DNA from: Aggregatimonas sangjinii
Lineage (GTDB): Bacteria; Bacteroidota; Bacteroidia; Flavobacteriales; Flavobacteriaceae
Assembly (NCBI RefSeq): GCF_005943945.1
Contig: NZ_CP040710.1
Location: forward strand, 4,509,501 to 4,573,500
Length of the DNA stretch: 64,000 nucleotides
Direction of reading: 5' to 3'
The position numbers and the translations under genes are program-made. The notes under the pieces were generated by a model. It did no database searches and was not told the origin of the DNA. It saw only the letters and a list, made by a program, of their open reading frames with translations. Below are positions 51,028 through 57,548 of the stretch, piece by piece. Within the stretch, counting starts at the first letter, position 1, and every line of letters begins with the position of its first letter.

Positions 51028-52002
51028 TTATTTCGGATAGGTTTCCAACACTTGGGCTTGTTCTTCGATGGCGGCCTTAAATTCCGATTTCAATGCGGTA
51101 ATCAATTGCGCTACTGGAACGGAGTCTTCGATCAGTGCGGAACCTTGGCCTGCGGACCAAATGGTTTTCCAAGCCTTTGCCTCGGTATCGAGTTCTTTTC
51201 CAAAATCGATTTTCGTGTCTTTTTTAAGGTCTTCTTCTGTAAGTCCCGCAGCTTTTAGGCTTGCTCCTAAAAAATTAGCGTGTACCCCTGAAATCGCGGC
51301 CGTGTAGACCACATCACTGGCGCCCGCATCAATGATCATTTTCTTGTATTCTTCCGGTGCCTTGCCTTCATCGGTATTGATAAAACGTGTGCCCATATAA
51401 GCCAAATCGGCACCCATTTGCAGGGCGGAGGCGATATCGCGACCCGTACTGATACATCCGGAAAGGATAATGGTCTTCTTAAAGAACTTCTTGATTTCGG
51501 CGACCAAGGTCATCGGGTTGATGGTACCCGCATGCCCACCTGCTCCAGCGGCCACCAAGATGAGTCCGTCTACCCCGGCTTCCTGCGCTTTTTCGGCATG
51601 TCGTTTTTTAACGATATCGTGAAAAACCAATCCGCCATAGCTATGAATGGCATCGACCACCATCGAGACCGCACCCAAGGAAGTAATGATTATGGGTACT
51701 TGGTGTTTGACGCACAATCTAATATCGGCTTCTAAGCGAGGATTCGTAGGATGTACAATAAGATTTACGCCGAAGGGAGCGGGTTTTTTACCGGTTTCCT
51801 TTTCGTAGGCTGCTAGCTCCGATTTGATTTCGATAAGCCATTCCTCAAAACCTTCGCTAGTTCTTTGATTCAGTGCCGGAAAGGTACCGACAATTCCATT
51901 TTTACAGCATTCTATCACCAATTTTGGTCCAGAAATAAGAAACATGGGAGCAGCAATGGCAGGTAGGGAAAGGTCTTTGATAAAGGAAGGGGTAGTACTC
52001 AT
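51028..52002 (-). CDS. Nitronate monooxygenase (2-nitropropane dioxygenase family)
   Basis: A 324-residue FMN-dependent TIM-barrel enzyme. Family motifs: LPAIAAPMFLISGPKLVIEC near the N-terminus, GVNLIVHPTNPRLEADI, the GAGGHAGTINPM phosphate/flavin loop (about residues 153-164), and IILSGCISTGRDIASALQMG, then GTRFINTDEG. It oxidises nitronates such as propionate 3-nitronate to protect the cell. Length and motifs fit. It is transcribed leftward, converging on the FAD fusion gene, and lies directly next to the AT-rich restriction-modification module on its right side. Confidence 0.95.
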   Translation of the reverse strand: MSTTPSFIKDLSLPAIAAPMFLISGPKLVIECCKNGIVGTFPALNQRTSEGFEEWLIEIKSELAAYEKETGKKPAPFGVNLIVHPTNPRLEADIRLCVKHQVPIIITSLGAVSMVVDAIHSYGGLVFHDIVKKRHAEKAQEAGVDGLILVAAGAGGHAGTINPMTLVAEIKKFFKKTIILSGCISTGRDIASALQMGADLAYMGTRFINTDEGKAPEEYKKMIIDAGASDVVYTAAISGVHANFLGASLKAAGLTEEDLKKDTKIDFGKELDTEAKAWKTIWSAGQGSALIEDSVPVAQLITALKSEFKAAIEEQAQVLETYPK

Positions 52003-52102: not shown

Positions 52103-52210
52103 TAATTGAGTTAAAGTAGGAATTTGCCTAACCAAAGATTCAATAAACATTTTGATGATAAAAACAAATAATTAAAAACTTAAGGATTTTTAAAAACAAA
52201 AATAAAAAAT

Positions 52211-52249
52211 GTCCGTAAATTTGTCCGTGTACGTAAAACCGTCCGTGAA
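52211..52249 (+). promoter_or_regulatory. GTCCGT-type direct repeats overlapping the predicted promoter
   Basis: Four related 9-mers occur: GTCCGTAAA (52211), GTCCGTGTA (52223), GTACGTAAA (52229, overlapping) and GTCCGTGAA (52241). Starts fall on a 6-bp grid with 12, 6 and 12 bp spacing. An exact -7 box TAAATTTG (52216-52223) lies between the first two. The ATG follows at 52255. This looks like an operator for the restriction-modification genes, possibly bound by the N-terminal domain of the methyltransferase itself. Confidence 0.6.
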
Positions 52250-52254
52250 TAATT

Positions 52255-54462
52255 ATGGCAACAATTAATTTTTATTTAGACAAACCTGACAAAAAAGGGT
52301 ATGCACCAATTCATCTTCGAATAAACTGTAATGGAAGCCAAGTTAAGGTTTCTACAGGACAAAAAATAGAACCAAAAAACTTCAATAAATCCAAACAAAA
52401 AGCGATTGGTTTAAGTGTAGAAACTCATGAAATAAACCATTATTTAAATTTCCTGAGAGAACGAGCGGACGAACTTTTGCACCACTCTAATAAAAAAATC
52501 TTTGTACAAAACGAAGTTAAAAGCGTATTGAACGAACACATAGAAAATTATAAAGAAAATAGCAATGTAAATATTGTGAAGGAGCAAGTTGCACTATATG
52601 GAAAACCATTCACTTTTGTTGATTTATTTGCTGGAGCTGGTGGTTTTAGTGAAGGTTTTTTGCAAGCTGAACACAACAATAAATTCTTCGATTTCGTCGT
52701 TGCCAACGATATAAATGAAAATTGTGAATTAACTCATGTTGTGCGTTATAATCATCAGTTAGGATTGGATACTGAGTTTTTAAAACAGGATATAACTGAA
52801 CCTGACTTTTTAGATAATTTATTAGAAAAAATAGACGGACGTAAAATTGACGTTGTATGTGGTGGACCACCTTGTCAAAGTTTTAGTCTTGCAGGAAAGC
52901 GAAAAAAATTCGATAAAAAAGACGACCTTTTTTCTCACTATTTAGAAGTCATTAAGGTTTTACAGCCTAAATACTTTGTGATGGAGAATGTAAAGGGCAT
53001 TTTGACCAAAGAAGGTGGAAAAATAAAAGAATTGATTATTAAAGAAATCAACTCCATTGTTGACACGAAGGAAATACCATTGCTAAATGCATTCATCAAA
53101 AAAATACGGACAGAATCAAATTCTTTCCTTTTTGATAGTATTGTAAAAAGAGTTGAACTGGAAAAACTACTTGAAAAAGATAAAGAAACTGGGAAAGCTG
53201 ATTTTATAGGCTTTGTAGAGAATAGATTTAAAAAACTAACCCCAAAAATCGTTGACTACAAAACCAGTAAGACAGATCAGAATATTAATACAATTCGTCA
53301 CGGTTTTAACCTTTTGGCAAGAACTAAAGAATGGGAAAAATTAAAACGGGATATTATCAAAGAAAAGGATTTTTGCAATATCGATAGTGATGATTTCGCA
53401 AATTCCTTTACAAACTTTTTAACAGAGATAAGCTCTGAAAATATCATTACAAAAATCGAGAATTCTTTTAAAGCTTTGAAAGTCCCAAACAATTACAGAA
53501 AGCATTGTGAGAATATTATCACTGCTTTAAAAATATACACAACATCTTTTGATGAATCCATAGAGATTTTAAAATCTCATTGTAACGAATCACAAAAAAA
53601 TGAATTAGAGACTATTCTTAGAAATATTAGGCTTTATAAAATAGAACAACCATTTGTCGCTAACGCATCAAATTATGGAGTTCCTCAAAATAGAGAAAGA
53701 GTACTTTTTATAGGTTGTCGCAAAGACCAAAAATATATTTCCGAAATCCCCGCAACAGTTTCAGAATTTGAAAAAGTGACCATTTTTGAAGCCTTGTACG
53801 ATTTAGATTTTATTGGTAATAACCAAGAAGCACATCGATATGAAGAAATTGATATTTCCACTCAATACAATGGGACTGCAAAGAAAATGGTTAAACTTCT
53901 AAAAAAAAGGAAAATTGATGGAAAACCAATTTCCAAAGGTGGTAAATCATTTGCCGAATGGTCAAAAAAAGGTAGATTAATTGAACGTTTTAAACCTCAA
54001 AAAAAACCATTTTACGTCAAGAATTCAGAAGGTCTGGAGAATGGAGAGAAATATTTCGACATACTTAACAATCATAAAACAAGCAATCAAAACGAAACTG
54101 TTGTCGAAAGACTCGGAGTAATCTTAAAAAATGGTAATTATAGAAAAGCACAACCAGAACTTGAAAAATTAAATCTTTCTACAAATAAGAGAAATTACAA
54201 TGTTTTAAAACCACATGAGCAAAGCTCTACAATAATGACTATTGCCGACGATTACATTCACTACAATTCGCCAAGGTCTCTAACAGTTAGAGAAATGGCA
54301 CGCTTACAATCGTTTGACGACTCATTTGTTTTTCAAGGAAAACGGTCTACTGGTGGAAATAACAGAAAAACAGAAGTGCCACAATACACCTTAGTTGGAA
54401 ATGCTGTTCCACCTTTATTGGCTAGAGCAGTAGCAAGTGAAATTTTAAAACATATCAATTGA
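52255..54462 (+). CDS. DNA cytosine-5 methyltransferase with N-terminal integrase Arm-like domain
   Basis: A 735-residue C5 methyltransferase. Residues 1-95 (MATINFYLDKPDKKGYAPIH, then VKVSTGQKIEPKNFNKSKQK) match the Arm DNA-binding domain pattern of Bacteroidota tyrosine recombinases. Methyltransferase motifs follow: I, FVDLFAGAGGFSEGF (121-135); IV, GGPPCQSF with catalytic Cys207; VI, MENVKGI (243-249); VIII, QNRERVLFIG (478-487); IX, RSLTVREMARLQSF (674-687); X, YTLVGNAVPP (711-720). Between VI and VIII lies a helical insert of about 200 residues (256-464), far longer than usual; the target recognition region is about 490-670. It is AT-rich with direct repeats upstream, overlaps the endonuclease gene by 4 bp, and modifies DNA to protect against it. 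The Arm fusion is unusual. Confidence 0.9.
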   Translation: MATINFYLDKPDKKGYAPIHLRINCNGSQVKVSTGQKIEPKNFNKSKQKAIGLSVETHEINHYLNFLRERADELLHHSNKKIFVQNEVKSVLNEHIENYKENSNVNIVKEQVALYGKPFTFVDLFAGAGGFSEGFLQAEHNNKFFDFVVANDINENCELTHVVRYNHQLGLDTEFLKQDITEPDFLDNLLEKIDGRKIDVVCGGPPCQSFSLAGKRKKFDKKDDLFSHYLEVIKVLQPKYFVMENVKGILTKEGGKIKELIIKEINSIVDTKEIPLLNAFIKKIRTESNSFLFDSIVKRVELEKLLEKDKETGKADFIGFVENRFKKLTPKIVDYKTSKTDQNINTIRHGFNLLARTKEWEKLKRDIIKEKDFCNIDSDDFANSFTNFLTEISSENIITKIENSFKALKVPNNYRKHCENIITALKIYTTSFDESIEILKSHCNESQKNELETILRNIRLYKIEQPFVANASNYGVPQNRERVLFIGCRKDQKYISEIPATVSEFEKVTIFEALYDLDFIGNNQEAHRYEEIDISTQYNGTAKKMVKLLKKRKIDGKPISKGGKSFAEWSKKGRLIERFKPQKKPFYVKNSEGLENGEKYFDILNNHKTSNQNETVVERLGVILKNGNYRKAQPELEKLNLSTNKRNYNVLKPHEQSSTIMTIADDYIHYNSPRSLTVREMARLQSFDDSFVFQGKRSTGGNNRKTEVPQYTLVGNAVPPLLARAVASEILKHIN

Positions 54463-55637
54463 GAAAACTTACAGTTGCAGAACAAGAAAAGATAAAATTA
54501 CTGACCAAAAATCAAGTTTCTCTAACTCTAATTGAACCTACTGAAACCGGACTAAAAAAATCCATTATGGACGCAACAGGTTCTGTTCGCAGTTATTTGA
54601 AAAGTGAAAACATCCACGATTATGAATTGCAAAATCAAGGCACAAAAAGCAAAATAATAATACAAACGATAATTCATACTGGTTTTAAAATTATAAAGTC
54701 TAAAGCATCTTTATATAGGCCTTCGACAAAAAATGGAGACCCAAGAATTTGGTTTTATAACCTAAAAAAGATTGCTGACCCGAATGATATTATAGCAATA
54801 GCCTATTTTGATGATAGATTTCAAATTTTCAACTTGACAAAATTAGATGTTAGGTCGTTAATTTATTCTTCTATTCAAAATCCTTTTCAAGATTTAATCA
54901 ATGCAATTAACACGACCGAAAACGAAGTTGCATTCGAGCTTTTGGCAATGTTGAGGAAAATAGCAAATGCTGGTCCAATTCCTTCAATGGTAAATGCAGA
55001 CACCTCAGTTGGGAGAACATTAGAGACAGCTCTTGGAATTGAAATTAACTCATCAAAAAACCCAGATTACAAAGGGATTGAGTTAAAGTCTTTCAGAAAT
55101 AATCGAACAAACCGAAAAAATCTCTTTGCGCAGGTTCCTGATTGGAAGTTAAGTAAGTTTAAAAGTTCAGCAGAAATTCTAGATAATTTTGGTTACCAAC
55201 GTGATGAAGATTTTAAATTGTATTGCACAGTTTCAGCAATTACAAGAAATTCACAGGGTTTGAGTCTAAGAATTGATGGAGAGATAAAGCAATTGATTGA
55301 AAACTCTGAAAAACAAGAAGTTGGAGATTTTGTGGTTTGGAAATTGGACAAACTGCACCATCGTTTAAAATCAAAACACAAAGAAACATTTTGGGTAGAA
55401 GCCGAAAGTACCAGAATAAATGACCGCGAACATTTTCAATATAAACTGGTAGAGCACACAAAAAAGCCAATTGCTTCTCAATTTGATCTTTTGATTGAGC
55501 AAGGAATAATAACACTTGATCATTTAATTAAGCGAAACTCAAGAGGTCGCGTTGTAGAAAAAGGACCGCTATTCAAAATTAAGCCTATGGGAATTGAATT
55601 ACTATTTCCACCAAGCGAAAGTTATAGCCTAATCTAG
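54459..55637 (+). CDS. Type II restriction endonuclease, MvaI/BcnI family
   Basis: A 392-residue endonuclease. The catalytic region is GRTLETALGIEINSSKNPDY followed by KGIELKS: Asp203, Glu208 and Lys210 have the same D-x4-E-x-K spacing as the MvaI active site, and GRTLE-x3-GI-x2-N is the family signature. The start is TTG at 54459 overlapping the methyltransferase stop (TTGA), so the two are coupled with methyltransferase first. The N-terminal about 150 residues are an extra domain not in the short MvaI/BcnI enzymes. MvaI and BcnI cut CCWGG and CCSGG; a CCNGG-like target is therefore a guess here. It is AT-rich and strongly suggests horizontal origin. Confidence 0.9.
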   Translation: MRKLTVAEQEKIKLLTKNQVSLTLIEPTETGLKKSIMDATGSVRSYLKSENIHDYELQNQGTKSKIIIQTIIHTGFKIIKSKASLYRPSTKNGDPRIWFYNLKKIADPNDIIAIAYFDDRFQIFNLTKLDVRSLIYSSIQNPFQDLINAINTTENEVAFELLAMLRKIANAGPIPSMVNADTSVGRTLETALGIEINSSKNPDYKGIELKSFRNNRTNRKNLFAQVPDWKLSKFKSSAEILDNFGYQRDEDFKLYCTVSAITRNSQGLSLRIDGEIKQLIENSEKQEVGDFVVWKLDKLHHRLKSKHKETFWVEAESTRINDREHFQYKLVEHTKKPIASQFDLLIEQGIITLDHLIKRNSRGRVVEKGPLFKIKPMGIELLFPPSESYSLI

Positions 55638-55718: not shown

Positions 55719-57548
55719 ATGCTGGACTATATAAAAGAAGTACTAAAAAATATGCCCGACGGATGGTTGCACCTCACCACCCACCGCCTGGATATTTATG
55801 ATGAACAATTGGCAAAAACCCAATTTTTAGAGCAGTTTGAAGTACTGTATAAAGCGAATAATGCCACCCGATCGGCCCTTGAGAAGTTACCAACGGCCTA
55901 CGATTACATTCGCTTGGGGCATCCGCTGTCCTGCGTATTGGAATGGGCGATAGCCAAATTGAACAATGTGGAGGCAGAAAACGTAATTGGTTTTTCATCC
56001 GAGACGACCCCTATTCTAGCTGTCCTTCGAAAAAATCTGTTGGAGCAGGTCAACACCCAAATTTGCTATACCAACGATTTGCCCGAAAATTTTGATGCAG
56101 AATTAATCAAACGAGTGTACGGGTATCACTTTGAATTCAAAAAAGTAGAAAGCTTAGAAGCAATTTCCGAATTCAAGGGAAGTACAATATTTATTTCTAA
56201 ACCGGACGATATCTCAAAAGTAGCCCGCAATTCAAATATCGACTTTTCCGTGAATCTGTACGGAGAATTGGGAAGTCTGTTGGTCGTCTACGGAGCACAG
56301 AATGTGACGTATATCCAAGAAATCCAACACGTACGACGAAGGGAGACCATTGCCATGACACCTTCCGATTGTCTTTTGGCTTTACAACGGCTGACCGGGG
56401 AAGCCTCAATAAGCATTCAAGATATTGATATGGACACGGCTAAAAAAACGGTTTTGGCCGAAATCGCGGATATCACCGGTGCACCCACCCCACCCCTGGT
56501 CGGTTCAAGTGGCTTATCGGTTCAATACGCCATTATGATGGGGCTCGTTCATGAGGCTTTGGAACATCACCCAGAAAAAGCCATTAAATTTATCGTGCCT
56601 CCCAACTGCTACGGTGGCACCAATGACCAAGCGAGACGTGTTGCCACTTGTCTGCCCCATGTAGAAGTGGTCGATTTACTGGTAGATGGCGAGAACGATA
56701 TGGTACAAAGTATCGATACCATCCTGAATGACATTGCCAAAGAAGATGCGATTCCGTATATCATAGCCGAAATCCCCACCAACCCAAGGGTCGAGGTCCC
56801 GGATTTATTGAAATTAAAGTCCGTATTGAATGCGGTTCGTAAGACGCCCTCTGGCGAATTGGCCGTTGATCCCGTTTTTATTTTGGACCAGACGTTTTGC
56901 CCAAATCTGCACTTTTTAGGACAGGGTGAAATATTGGATACGGGCAGGGCGATTTCCTATGCGAGTGGGTCTAAATTCCCCAGTGGTGGACAATGTACGG
57001 CGGGCTATGTGGTCGGAAATAGAAAAGCCGAAGGTTTAATGGGGAAGATAGCATTGCACCTGCGTCTTTGCGACAACGAGGCGACACCACATCAATATCA
57101 AATATTGGCCGAACAACTGCCCTCAATGAACCAACGAATTCGGGAAGCCTATACCAACACCCGTGAGTTTGTAGACTTCATTCAGGCCAGCTTACCATCC
57201 GCCAAAATCAATTTCGTTTCGGAAGAATTGGCACAACAAGGGTTTATGCCTTCGGTATTTTCGTTAGATCTTCCGACTAAGGGAGATACGCCCGTAGAAA
57301 AGGAAGCCTATAAGAGAGCGTTGAATCACAAACTGATTCAGATGATGATTACCGAAATTCCCGAGGAGAGCAAGTATTGTGTCAGCTATGGGCAGCTAAA
57401 GGGATGTTATTGGACGATTCCCGCAACGTCTACGCAAGGCACCACAAAGGAAGGCGATAAAGACTATATTGCCCGTGTGGCCCTTTCTCCATCTATGGAT
57501 TTAGAACGGCATAAAGAGGTCTTTTCGGAATTTGTGGAGCAGATTTGA
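55719..57548 (+). CDS. Large Cys/Met metabolism-type PLP-dependent enzyme
   Basis: A 609-residue PLP enzyme of the trans-sulfuration fold. The PLP-lysine is in YASGSKFPSGGQCTAGY (Lys about residue 417, rough), after AEIPTNPRVEVPDLLKLK and FILDQTFCPNLHFLG, which hold the phosphate-proximal Asp. The first about 230 residues are an extra domain not found in cystathionine gamma-synthase. Such large forms are seen in Bacteroidota, and the substrate is unknown; a separate, normal-length trans-sulfuration enzyme lies at 60453-61607. It begins 81 bp after the endonuclease stop, but its GC content is chromosomal, so it is not part of the restriction-modification island. Confidence 0.85.
   Translation: MLDYIKEVLKNMPDGWLHLTTHRLDIYDEQLAKTQFLEQFEVLYKANNATRSALEKLPTAYDYIRLGHPLSCVLEWAIAKLNNVEAENVIGFSSETTPILAVLRKNLLEQVNTQICYTNDLPENFDAELIKRVYGYHFEFKKVESLEAISEFKGSTIFISKPDDISKVARNSNIDFSVNLYGELGSLLVVYGAQNVTYIQEIQHVRRRETIAMTPSDCLLALQRLTGEASISIQDIDMDTAKKTVLAEIADITGAPTPPLVGSSGLSVQYAIMMGLVHEALEHHPEKAIKFIVPPNCYGGTNDQARRVATCLPHVEVVDLLVDGENDMVQSIDTILNDIAKEDAIPYIIAEIPTNPRVEVPDLLKLKSVLNAVRKTPSGELAVDPVFILDQTFCPNLHFLGQGEILDTGRAISYASGSKFPSGGQCTAGYVVGNRKAEGLMGKIALHLRLCDNEATPHQYQILAEQLPSMNQRIREAYTNTREFVDFIQASLPSAKINFVSEELAQQGFMPSVFSLDLPTKGDTPVEKEAYKRALNHKLIQMMITEIPEESKYCVSYGQLKGCYWTIPATSTQGTTKEGDKDYIARVALSPSMDLERHKEVFSEFVEQI

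What the first reader, a model, noticed from the sequence alone, without database searches (positions are those of the whole stretch)
52255..54462. C5 methyltransferase fused to an integrase Arm-like DNA-binding domain
Residues 1-95 of the methyltransferase have the short, Lys-rich pattern (MATINFYLDK, PDKKGYAPIHLRI, VKVSTGQKI and a coiled C-terminal helix) typical of the Arm-DNA-bind domain that precedes the SAM-like and catalytic domains of Bacteroidota tyrosine recombinases. In this gene it precedes a full set of C5-methyltransferase motifs. Known N-terminal extensions of C5 methyltransferases (M.SsoII, M.EcoRII, M.MspI) act as repressors of their own operons, so an Arm domain could have been recruited for the same purpose. 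This fusion is not one I know as described. The helical insert of about 200 residues between motifs VI and VIII is a second unusual trait.
Basis: partly seen in the sequence, partly recalled or inferred. Interest (0 to 1): 0.78.

Follow-up and report, generated by a model that had tools for sequence, protein, structure and literature searches.

The report
DNA methylase with an integrase-derived DNA-binding arm
A bacterial DNA-modifying enzyme carries at its front end the DNA-gripping arm of a phage-type integrase, next to a strongly conserved set of repeats in its own promoter, so it probably turns its own restriction-modification genes down, with a different kind of domain from the described cases.

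Summary
Window 52255-54462 encodes a 735-aa C5-cytosine methyltransferase whose residues 9-74 match Pfam Arm-DNA-bind_5 (E 3.9e-8; 1.1e-9 for residues 1-112 alone). An MvaI/BcnI-type endonuclease gene overlaps its stop codon: a type II restriction-modification operon. The fusion is old and widespread: one genome scan gave 78 homologues over residues 1-734 (66-95% identity), and a divergent clade (Arm 35-40% identical) keeps it. In 90 of 91 upstream regions examined, a direct-repeat pair TGTCCGT-N5-TGTCCGT (or a close variant) starts 24-51 bp before the ATG, mostly followed by a second pair; the Bacteroidota -7 box TAnnTTTG lies within it in 83 of 90. Related Arm integrases have 11/12-bp-spaced direct repeats just upstream of their start codons (57 of 86; shuffles 3.2), and among them Arm similarity predicts repeat similarity (r 0.36, 0 of 5000 permutations). 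Best reading: the Arm is a captured operator-binding domain that autorepresses the operon, a non-HTH variant of the 'regulatory methyltransferase'. Binding and repression are inferred, not shown. The 200-residue helical insert is real but unexplained.

The parts
52210..52246 (+). Putative operator: four TGTCCGT-like direct repeats at 52210, 52222, 52228 (TGTACGT) and 52240 (CGTCCGT), i.e. two 12-bp-spaced pairs 18 bp apart
   Evidence: Read directly. First pair (degenerate pattern allowing single-base variants) in 90 of 91 Arm-methyltransferase upstream regions examined; mean information 1.68 bits per position over the 37 bp against 0.41 in the 46 bp upstream, 22 non-redundant loci anchored on that pattern. 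Exception L214. Only exact TGTCCGTN5TGTCCGT in the 4.72-Mb genome.
52216..52223 (+). Bacteroidota -7 promoter box TAAATTTG (consensus TAnnTTTG), from the end of repeat 1 into repeat 2
   Evidence: Read directly; TAnnTTTG at this place in 83 of 90 loci. Consensus from PMC7366714 (passage seen). Transcription start not tested.
52255..52590 (+). Arm DNA-binding domain and linker of the methyltransferase (residues 1-112; Pfam match 9-74)
   Evidence: PF17293 E 1.1e-9; model of residues 1-112, mean pLDDT 84.6, strands 3-8, 17-25, 28-38, helices 55-76, 85-110; dN/dS 0.050 for residues 2-75
52255..54462 (+). C5-cytosine DNA methyltransferase with N-terminal Arm domain, 735 aa
   Evidence: PF00145 E 2e-52; TIGR00675 dcm E 1.2e-45; 44-sequence alignment
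53011..53628 (+). Helical insert (about residues 253-458) between methyltransferase motifs VI and VIII; function unknown
   Evidence: Helical in the model, pLDDT block means 69-91; no significant Pfam match; median dN/dS 0.054, 181 pairs
54459..55637 (+). MvaI/BcnI-family restriction endonuclease, 392 aa, TTG start overlapping the methyltransferase stop by 4 bases
   Evidence: PF15515 E 3.5e-79; a complete ORF of 390-398 aa with the same 4-base overlap in 55 of 79 rows, window included (33 GTG, 21 ATG, 1 TTG); a relative of this endonuclease in 71 of 78 loci

Best explanation
This is the methyltransferase-endonuclease operon of a type II restriction-modification system. The methyltransferase carries a captured N-terminal Arm domain of a Bacteroidota tyrosine integrase. 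The Arm most likely binds the TGTCCGT direct repeats that span the -7 box and the start of the transcript. In a new host no methyltransferase is present, the promoter is open, and the first gene (methyltransferase) is made ahead of the translationally coupled endonuclease. As methyltransferase accumulates, Arm domains occupy the paired repeats, exclude RNA polymerase and hold the whole operon at a low level. Shown by computation: domain, operon layout, repeat array, its conservation and promoter overlap, and covariation of Arm and repeats in integrases. Inferred: binding, repression, timing, and that domain and operator were captured together.
For: Arm match 1.1e-9 and a predicted three-strand, two-helix domain. 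Repeat pair in 90 of 91 upstream regions; loci were found by protein, not by motif. Footprint 33-34 of 37 identical between the window and three members of a clade whose Arms are only 35-40% identical, so recent spread does not explain the conserved DNA. TAnnTTTG inside it in 83 of 90. Unique exact pair in the genome; no pair outside the promoter in 78 loci, 667,404 bases. Arm integrases with the same N-terminal register have 11/12-bp direct repeats within 120 bp of the start: 57 of 86 against 3.2 in shuffles; the part not inspected before the test, nor 70% alike to anything inspected, gives 36 of 57, against 7 of 30 in the other Arm subtype, Fisher p 6.1e-4. Arm identity predicts repeat similarity, Mantel r 0.364, 0 of 5000, against 0.090 (96 of 5000) for neighbouring DNA. 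One of the closest integrases, L227, has TGTCAGTAAATGTGTCAGTAA before its start. Arm under purifying selection.
Against: No binding or expression data. Across 62 integrases, Arm score against the methyltransferase profile does not correlate with likeness of the repeat to TGTCCGT (rho -0.12, p 0.34), so the link through L227 is a single case. Integrase covariation can come partly from common descent (control r 0.09). Other Arm subtypes show some repeats too (7 of 31, shuffles 1.1). Only 15 of 57 integrase repeat pairs have TAnnTTTG nearby (mononucleotide shuffles 2.2), so promoter overlap is not general among integrases. No TTG 19-21 bp upstream of the box in 64 of 83 loci. L214 has the fusion without the repeats. 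Repressing a shared promoter would lower the endonuclease too, unlike Ecl18kI.
Confidence: 0.72

Rival explanations
1. The repeats are a mobility site: the Arm (in trans, or a host integrase with a matching Arm) uses TGTCCGT repeats as arm-type sites to move the restriction-modification unit, and regulation is secondary.
For: The domain is the N-terminal domain of tyrosine integrases (5 of 5 scanned). The unit moves between genera: 94-95% identical proteins in different genera, and the window copy lies beside a gene whose 9 orthologues in the genus have no methyltransferase or endonuclease relative within 1.5 kb. Some copies sit between conserved non-coding blocks.
Against: No repeat pair outside the promoter in 78 loci, 667,404 bases. 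The Arm is fused to a methyltransferase, and no recombinase domain is found. The repeats start 24-51 bp before the ATG in 90 of 91 upstream regions.
Confidence: 0.1
2. The repeats are read by something else (a host factor, or the methyltransferase catalytic domain through its methylation site), and the Arm serves target search or oligomerisation on bulk DNA.
For: No direct binding evidence. Regulation by methylation of a promoter site is known for CfrBI (PMC3978073, passage). Arm score does not track likeness to TGTCCGT.
Against: The repeat spacing (12 bp) is one of the two enriched before Arm integrases, and Arm identity predicts repeats there. No CCNGG site, the class expected for an MvaI/BcnI partner (recalled), lies in the footprint (read).
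Confidence: 0.13
3. The Arm is a passenger left over from a fusion accident, without function; the conserved promoter works alone.
For: Arm evolves somewhat faster than motifs I-VI (median dN/dS 0.050 against 0.020).
Against: dN/dS 0.050 is strong purifying selection; 20 invariant positions among 112 in 40 sequences; no Arm-less copy among the 78 homologues that are not cut by a contig end.
Confidence: 0.05

Closest known systems
Regulatory (dual-function) C5 methyltransferases M.Ecl18kI / M.SsoII, M.EcoRII, M.MspI
   Same: C5 methyltransferases that repress their own genes, described as having an N-terminal DNA-binding extension and an operator over their promoter (PMC3978073, PMC3874152, PMC12707154: passages).
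   Different: There the domain is a helix-turn-helix; for M.SsoII it is modelled on phage 434 repressor, and its promoter site is discussed with inverted repeats. Here it is a predicted beta-sheet Arm domain with tandem 12-bp-spaced direct repeats, and methyltransferase and endonuclease lie in one operon, not divergent as in Ecl18kI.
Bacteroidota tyrosine integrases of the Arm-DNA-bind_5 / Phage_int_SAM_5 / Phage_integrase architecture
   Same: Same N-terminal domain, and in 57 of 86 of the matching subtype 11/12-bp direct repeats just upstream of the start codon.
   Different: No SAM-like or catalytic integrase domain found in the window protein; a methyltransferase instead.
MvaI/BcnI restriction-modification systems
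   Same: Endonuclease partner belongs to PF15515.
   Different: Target sequence of this system not determined; the methyltransferase has the Arm and a helical insert.
Control (C) protein regulated restriction-modification systems
   Same: Control by a protein that binds its own promoter (review passages).
   Different: No further ORF of 40 aa or more lies in the gap before the methyltransferase or in the gap after the endonuclease; the neighbours are a nitronate monooxygenase-like gene (51028-52002) and a large enzyme-like ORF (55719-57548) (names from recall).

Membership tests
C5-cytosine DNA methyltransferase (PF00145) | Catalytic fold and motifs, among them I, IV (PCQ), VI (ENV) and VIII | tested here: met
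   PF00145 E 2e-52, two stretches; PCQ, ENV and QNR among the invariant columns of 44 homologues
Type II restriction-modification system, MvaI/BcnI class | Endonuclease of PF15515 next to the methyltransferase | tested here: met
   PF15515 E 3.5e-79, genes overlap by 4 bases
Type II restriction-modification system, MvaI/BcnI class | Cleavage and methylation of the same CCNGG-type site (recalled) | not testable with these tools
   Needs biochemistry or methylome data
Arm-DNA-bind_5 domain (PF17293) | Profile match above curated cut-off | tested here: met
   39.2 bits (34.1 in the whole protein) against cut-off 22.6
Arm-DNA-bind_5 domain (PF17293) | Structural match to a solved arm-type binding domain | tested here: inconclusive
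   HAI7 integrase arm domain 3ju0: Z 4.3, rmsd 3.0, 71 aligned, 14% identity, third of 50 rows, but tied with unrelated rows; Foldseek gave nothing at E <= 0.001
Tyrosine recombinase | Phage_integrase catalytic domain | tested here: not met
   Absent from the Pfam scan at E <= 1; present in 5 of 5 Arm integrases scanned
Regulatory methyltransferase, HTH type (M.SsoII, M.Ecl18kI, M.EcoRII) | N-terminal helix-turn-helix domain | tested here: not met
   Pfam finds Arm-DNA-bind_5, no HTH family; predicted three strands then two helices
Regulatory methyltransferase, HTH type (M.SsoII, M.Ecl18kI, M.EcoRII) | Operator overlapping the methyltransferase promoter | tested here: inconclusive
   Conserved repeats contain TAnnTTTG in 83 of 90 loci; by sequence only, neither operator nor promoter was assayed
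Regulatory methyltransferase, HTH type (M.SsoII, M.Ecl18kI, M.EcoRII) | The methyltransferase represses its own gene | not testable with these tools
   Needs a reporter or transcript assay

The most novel reading that the evidence does not exclude
An integrase promoter-operator-Arm module was captured whole by a methyltransferase gene, giving a second, non-HTH class of self-repressing methyltransferase; and the 11/12-bp direct repeats before Arm-DNA-bind_5 integrases are their Arm sites and operators at once, so that the Arm is a reusable repressor domain with a readable recognition code across Bacteroidota.
Probability: 0.5. Interest if true: 0.76.

Novelty: new variant of a known kind. Interest (0 to 1): 0.66.

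Why it matters
Two reviews describe self-repressing methyltransferases as HTH fusions (PMC3874152 and PMC12707154, passages). A widespread family that uses an integrase Arm and tandem direct repeats would show a second origin of that control, and link restriction-modification regulation to mobile-element integrases. It also gives a short, testable operator for Bacteroidota, and a rule for predicting Arm binding sites of many integrases.

Tried and rejected
Exact pattern TGTCCGTN5TGTCCGTGT in viral contigs: 75 stretches. The script output on them was cut in the middle; those read were mostly G+C-rich simple repeats. A profile of the methyltransferase Arm finds no match at E <= 0.1 in any of the 75. 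In 395 phylum genomes: 7 with the pattern, 3 being this operon and 4 without an Arm gene downstream.

Hypothesis that likeness of an integrase Arm to the methyltransferase Arm predicts a TGTCCGT-like repeat: not supported over 62 integrases. The general Arm-to-repeat link is supported.

Arm sequence profile against solved structures: no relative, only three chains at E 0.2-0.3, two of them named as designs. Foldseek of the Arm model: no hit at E <= 0.001. Full-length model: mean pLDDT 61, methyltransferase core poor, so nothing is concluded from it beyond helices in the insert; its four Foldseek hits at E <= 0.001 were M.HhaI chains. Phages and plasmids by protein: no record covers 80% of the query, and the 15 best rows listed of each start at residue 108 or later (176 and 382 further records not listed).

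Print searches (PMC open set): Arm domain plus methyltransferase, PF17293 (one unrelated paper), regulatory methyltransferases, arm-type sites in Bacteroides, integrase autorepression, MvaI and flavobacteria. Nothing describing this fusion or these repeats was seen in the rows listed, which were the top rows only. Most subscription papers, and REBASE, were not searchable, so 'undescribed' is limited to these searches.

Rows dropped before counts: of 40 regions fetched were used; L245, L255-L261, L263, L264 and L265 were left out. L274 (start codon misplaced) and L320, L349, L380, L386 (no ATG) were dropped. Non-redundancy at 70% Arm identity left 86 of 106 type-1 and 31 of 37 type-2 integrases and 12 Arm-methyltransferases. 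One search gave 38 of 62 for the later-fetched type-1 set; five of those repeated or resembled Arms inspected earlier, so I use the recount (36 of 57). The 90 upstream regions hold some near-duplicates (e.g. L056 and L208 look alike); L080 and L082 were cut by contig ends and not counted. L177-L181, L212, L267, L268 and L270 were not added: L177 and L267 are the window itself, L268 and L270 repeat places held as L180 and L208, L212 reads like L211, and the pair is visible in L178-L181.

Full report
What is there. Window 52255-54462 is one ORF of 735 codons. Pfam finds Arm-DNA-bind_5 at residues 9-74 (34.1 bits, E 3.9e-8; 39.2 bits, E 1.1e-9 for residues 1-112) and DNA_methylase from residue 119 (E 2e-52). 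The next ORF, 54459-55637, starts at a TTG that overlaps the methyltransferase stop by four bases and is an MvaI/BcnI endonuclease (E 3.5e-79). Of 79 rows (78 loci and the window), 55 have a complete ORF of 390-398 aa with the same four-base overlap (33 GTG, 21 ATG, 1 TTG), and 71 of the 78 loci hold a relative of this endonuclease. So this is a two-gene type II restriction-modification operon.

Is the fusion real and old? A scan of one genome per species returned the best 80 of 90 confirmed relatives; 78 align over residues 1-734 at 66-95% identity (best segment), and two (L080, L082) are cut by contig ends. The fusion is in 6 of 149 genomes of the same family, the window's own among them, and in 11 of 395 of the class. 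In the class search these score 73-197 bits against the Arm profile, and the next hits, with frames of integrase size, score at most 48.6. Six of the eleven (L211-L216) form a divergent clade (Arm 35-40% identical to the window in the three measured) with the same order of domains (Pfam of L211 and L213; GGPPCQSFS in five of the six). Codons of the Arm evolve under strong purifying selection: median dN/dS 0.050, against 0.020 for motifs I-VI and 0.054 for the insert, in 186 (insert 181) pairs chosen by divergence limits and compared without gaps.

The unnoticed part: the operator. Directly before the ATG lie TGTCCGT (52210), TGTCCGT (52222), TGTACGT (52228) and CGTCCGT (52240), that is, two 12-bp-spaced pairs, 18 bp apart. 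A degenerate pattern finds the first pair in 90 of 90 upstream regions, and repeats 3 and 4 in 86 of these. L058, L064, L084 and L269 have one pair only. A 91st, L214, has no such repeats; what looks like another gene abuts there in the opposite direction (my reading). Over 22 loci less than 80% alike in the Arm, anchored on that pattern, the 37-bp footprint has 1.68 bits per position and the 46 bp before it 0.41. The window and three members of the divergent clade share 33-34 of 37 footprint bases while their Arms are only 35-40% identical. From the end of repeat 1 into repeat 2 runs TAAATTTG; TAnnTTTG, the -7 consensus of Bacteroides that was also confirmed in Flavobacterium johnsoniae (PMC7366714, passage), stands there in 83 of 90 loci. 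A TTG 19-21 bp further upstream is missing in 64 of those 83; [quoted passage not shown] johnsoniae. The exact pair is unique in the 4.72-Mb genome, and no pair occurs outside the promoter in 78 loci, 667,404 bases.

Does an Arm of this kind read such repeats? Integrases with the same N-terminal register (profile match from model position 1-3, 'type 1') were collected from class and phylum searches with their upstream DNA. Five of five Arm integrases scanned have the standard Arm / SAM-like / Phage_integrase order. Exact direct repeats of at least 7 bp at 11- or 12-bp spacing lie within 120 bp of the start in 57 of 86 type-1 integrases (dinucleotide shuffles 3.23, at most 8), in 7 of 31 of the other subtype (1.12, at most 4), and in 10 of 12 Arm-methyltransferases (0.37, at most 2). 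Some type-1 cases had suggested the idea. The part that I had not inspected before, and that is less than 70% alike to anything inspected, gives 36 of 57 (mononucleotide shuffles 1.82, at most 7), against 7 of 30 in the other subtype, Fisher p 6.1e-4. Among 51 type-1 integrases with repeats of at least 8 bp, Arm identity predicts repeat similarity (Mantel r 0.364, 0 of 5000 permutations); the neighbouring DNA gives r 0.090, 96 of 5000. Common descent can contribute to both.

Limits. Likeness of an integrase Arm to the methyltransferase Arm does not predict likeness of its repeat to TGTCCGT over 62 integrases (rho -0.12, p 0.34). The best single parallel is L227 (same place as L218, 48.6 bits), with TGTCAGTAAATGTGTCAGTAA before its start; its repeat is the most TGTCCGT-like of the 62 (10 of 12 letters). 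TAnnTTTG lies near the integrase repeats in only 15 of 57 (mononucleotide shuffles 2.2). The Arm-only model is confident (mean pLDDT 84.6, three strands and two helices). Its second-look match to the HAI7 integrase arm domain (3ju0, Z 4.3, rmsd 3.0, 71 residues) is tied with unrelated folds, so it is only suggestive.

How it most likely works. Inferred from the above: the Arm binds paired repeats over the -7 box and the first transcribed bases, and excludes RNA polymerase as the methyltransferase accumulates. The gene order and the coupled, often non-ATG start of the endonuclease would delay the endonuclease at first; later the operon is held low. Q29 and K31 on strand 3, kept in both methyltransferase clades with few exceptions (alignments), are candidate contacts (inference).

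Known relatives. Reviews describe regulatory methyltransferases as fused to an N-terminal HTH domain, with an operator at the methyltransferase promoter (PMC3874152 and PMC12707154, passages). M.SsoII is modelled on the phage 434 repressor in that region, and its promoter site is discussed with those of inverted-repeat type (PMC3978073, passages). The present system works like these by layout, but fails the HTH feature. It is therefore filed as a new variant of the kind, with a different domain, direct instead of inverted repeats, and a single operon. In the rows listed by the searches made no description of this fusion was seen.

Mobility. In nine genomes of the genus the neighbouring gene (51028-52002) is present without a methyltransferase or endonuclease relative within 1.5 kb; but neither of the two other window neighbours tested lies there either, so gene order is not kept around it and this is not a clean empty site. 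It fits gain at this place, and does not say how.

The insert. Residues 246-458 are predicted as twelve helices; the stretch is under selection, without a significant Pfam match. I have no explanation for it.

Checking. 

Noticed in passing
Upstream of Arm-DNA-bind_5 integrases, e.g. L230 (AAAGTGTCCCCC twice), L238, L251, L275, L301: Direct repeats at 11- or 12-bp spacing stand within 120 bp of the start codon in 57 of 86 type-1 integrases; likely Arm sites, of wider use than this finding.
   Followed up: yes
L005, L007, L016 and similar loci, upstream of the operator and after the endonuclease stop: Many marine flavobacterial copies are bracketed by conserved non-coding blocks (upstream '..CTCGTGCCTCACAAAATAAAAAGAGCTTGCC..', downstream '..GCCAACGCTGAAAGCCATACACATTTCC..'), which looks like a cassette-like unit; 23 of the 80 loci sit on contigs of 3.5-8.4 kb. 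Not seen next to the window copy.
   Followed up: no
L017, L034, L053, L062, L063, L066; L030; L064, L070, L075, L076, L077, L081: Some copies have two extra genes between methyltransferase and endonuclease (in L017 and L034 with weak or clear GmrSD_N-like matches), and one has an Mrr gene. In six others a convergent ORF (about 310 aa in five, three of them tested without Pfam match) follows the methyltransferase, and no relative of the endonuclease is found, as if partners were swapped.
   Followed up: partly
window 53011-53628: Helical insert of about 200 residues inside the methyltransferase, conserved but of unknown role.
   Followed up: partly
L214: A copy of the divergent fusion clade without the repeats; the upstream DNA reads as the start of a gene on the other strand.
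   Followed up: partly
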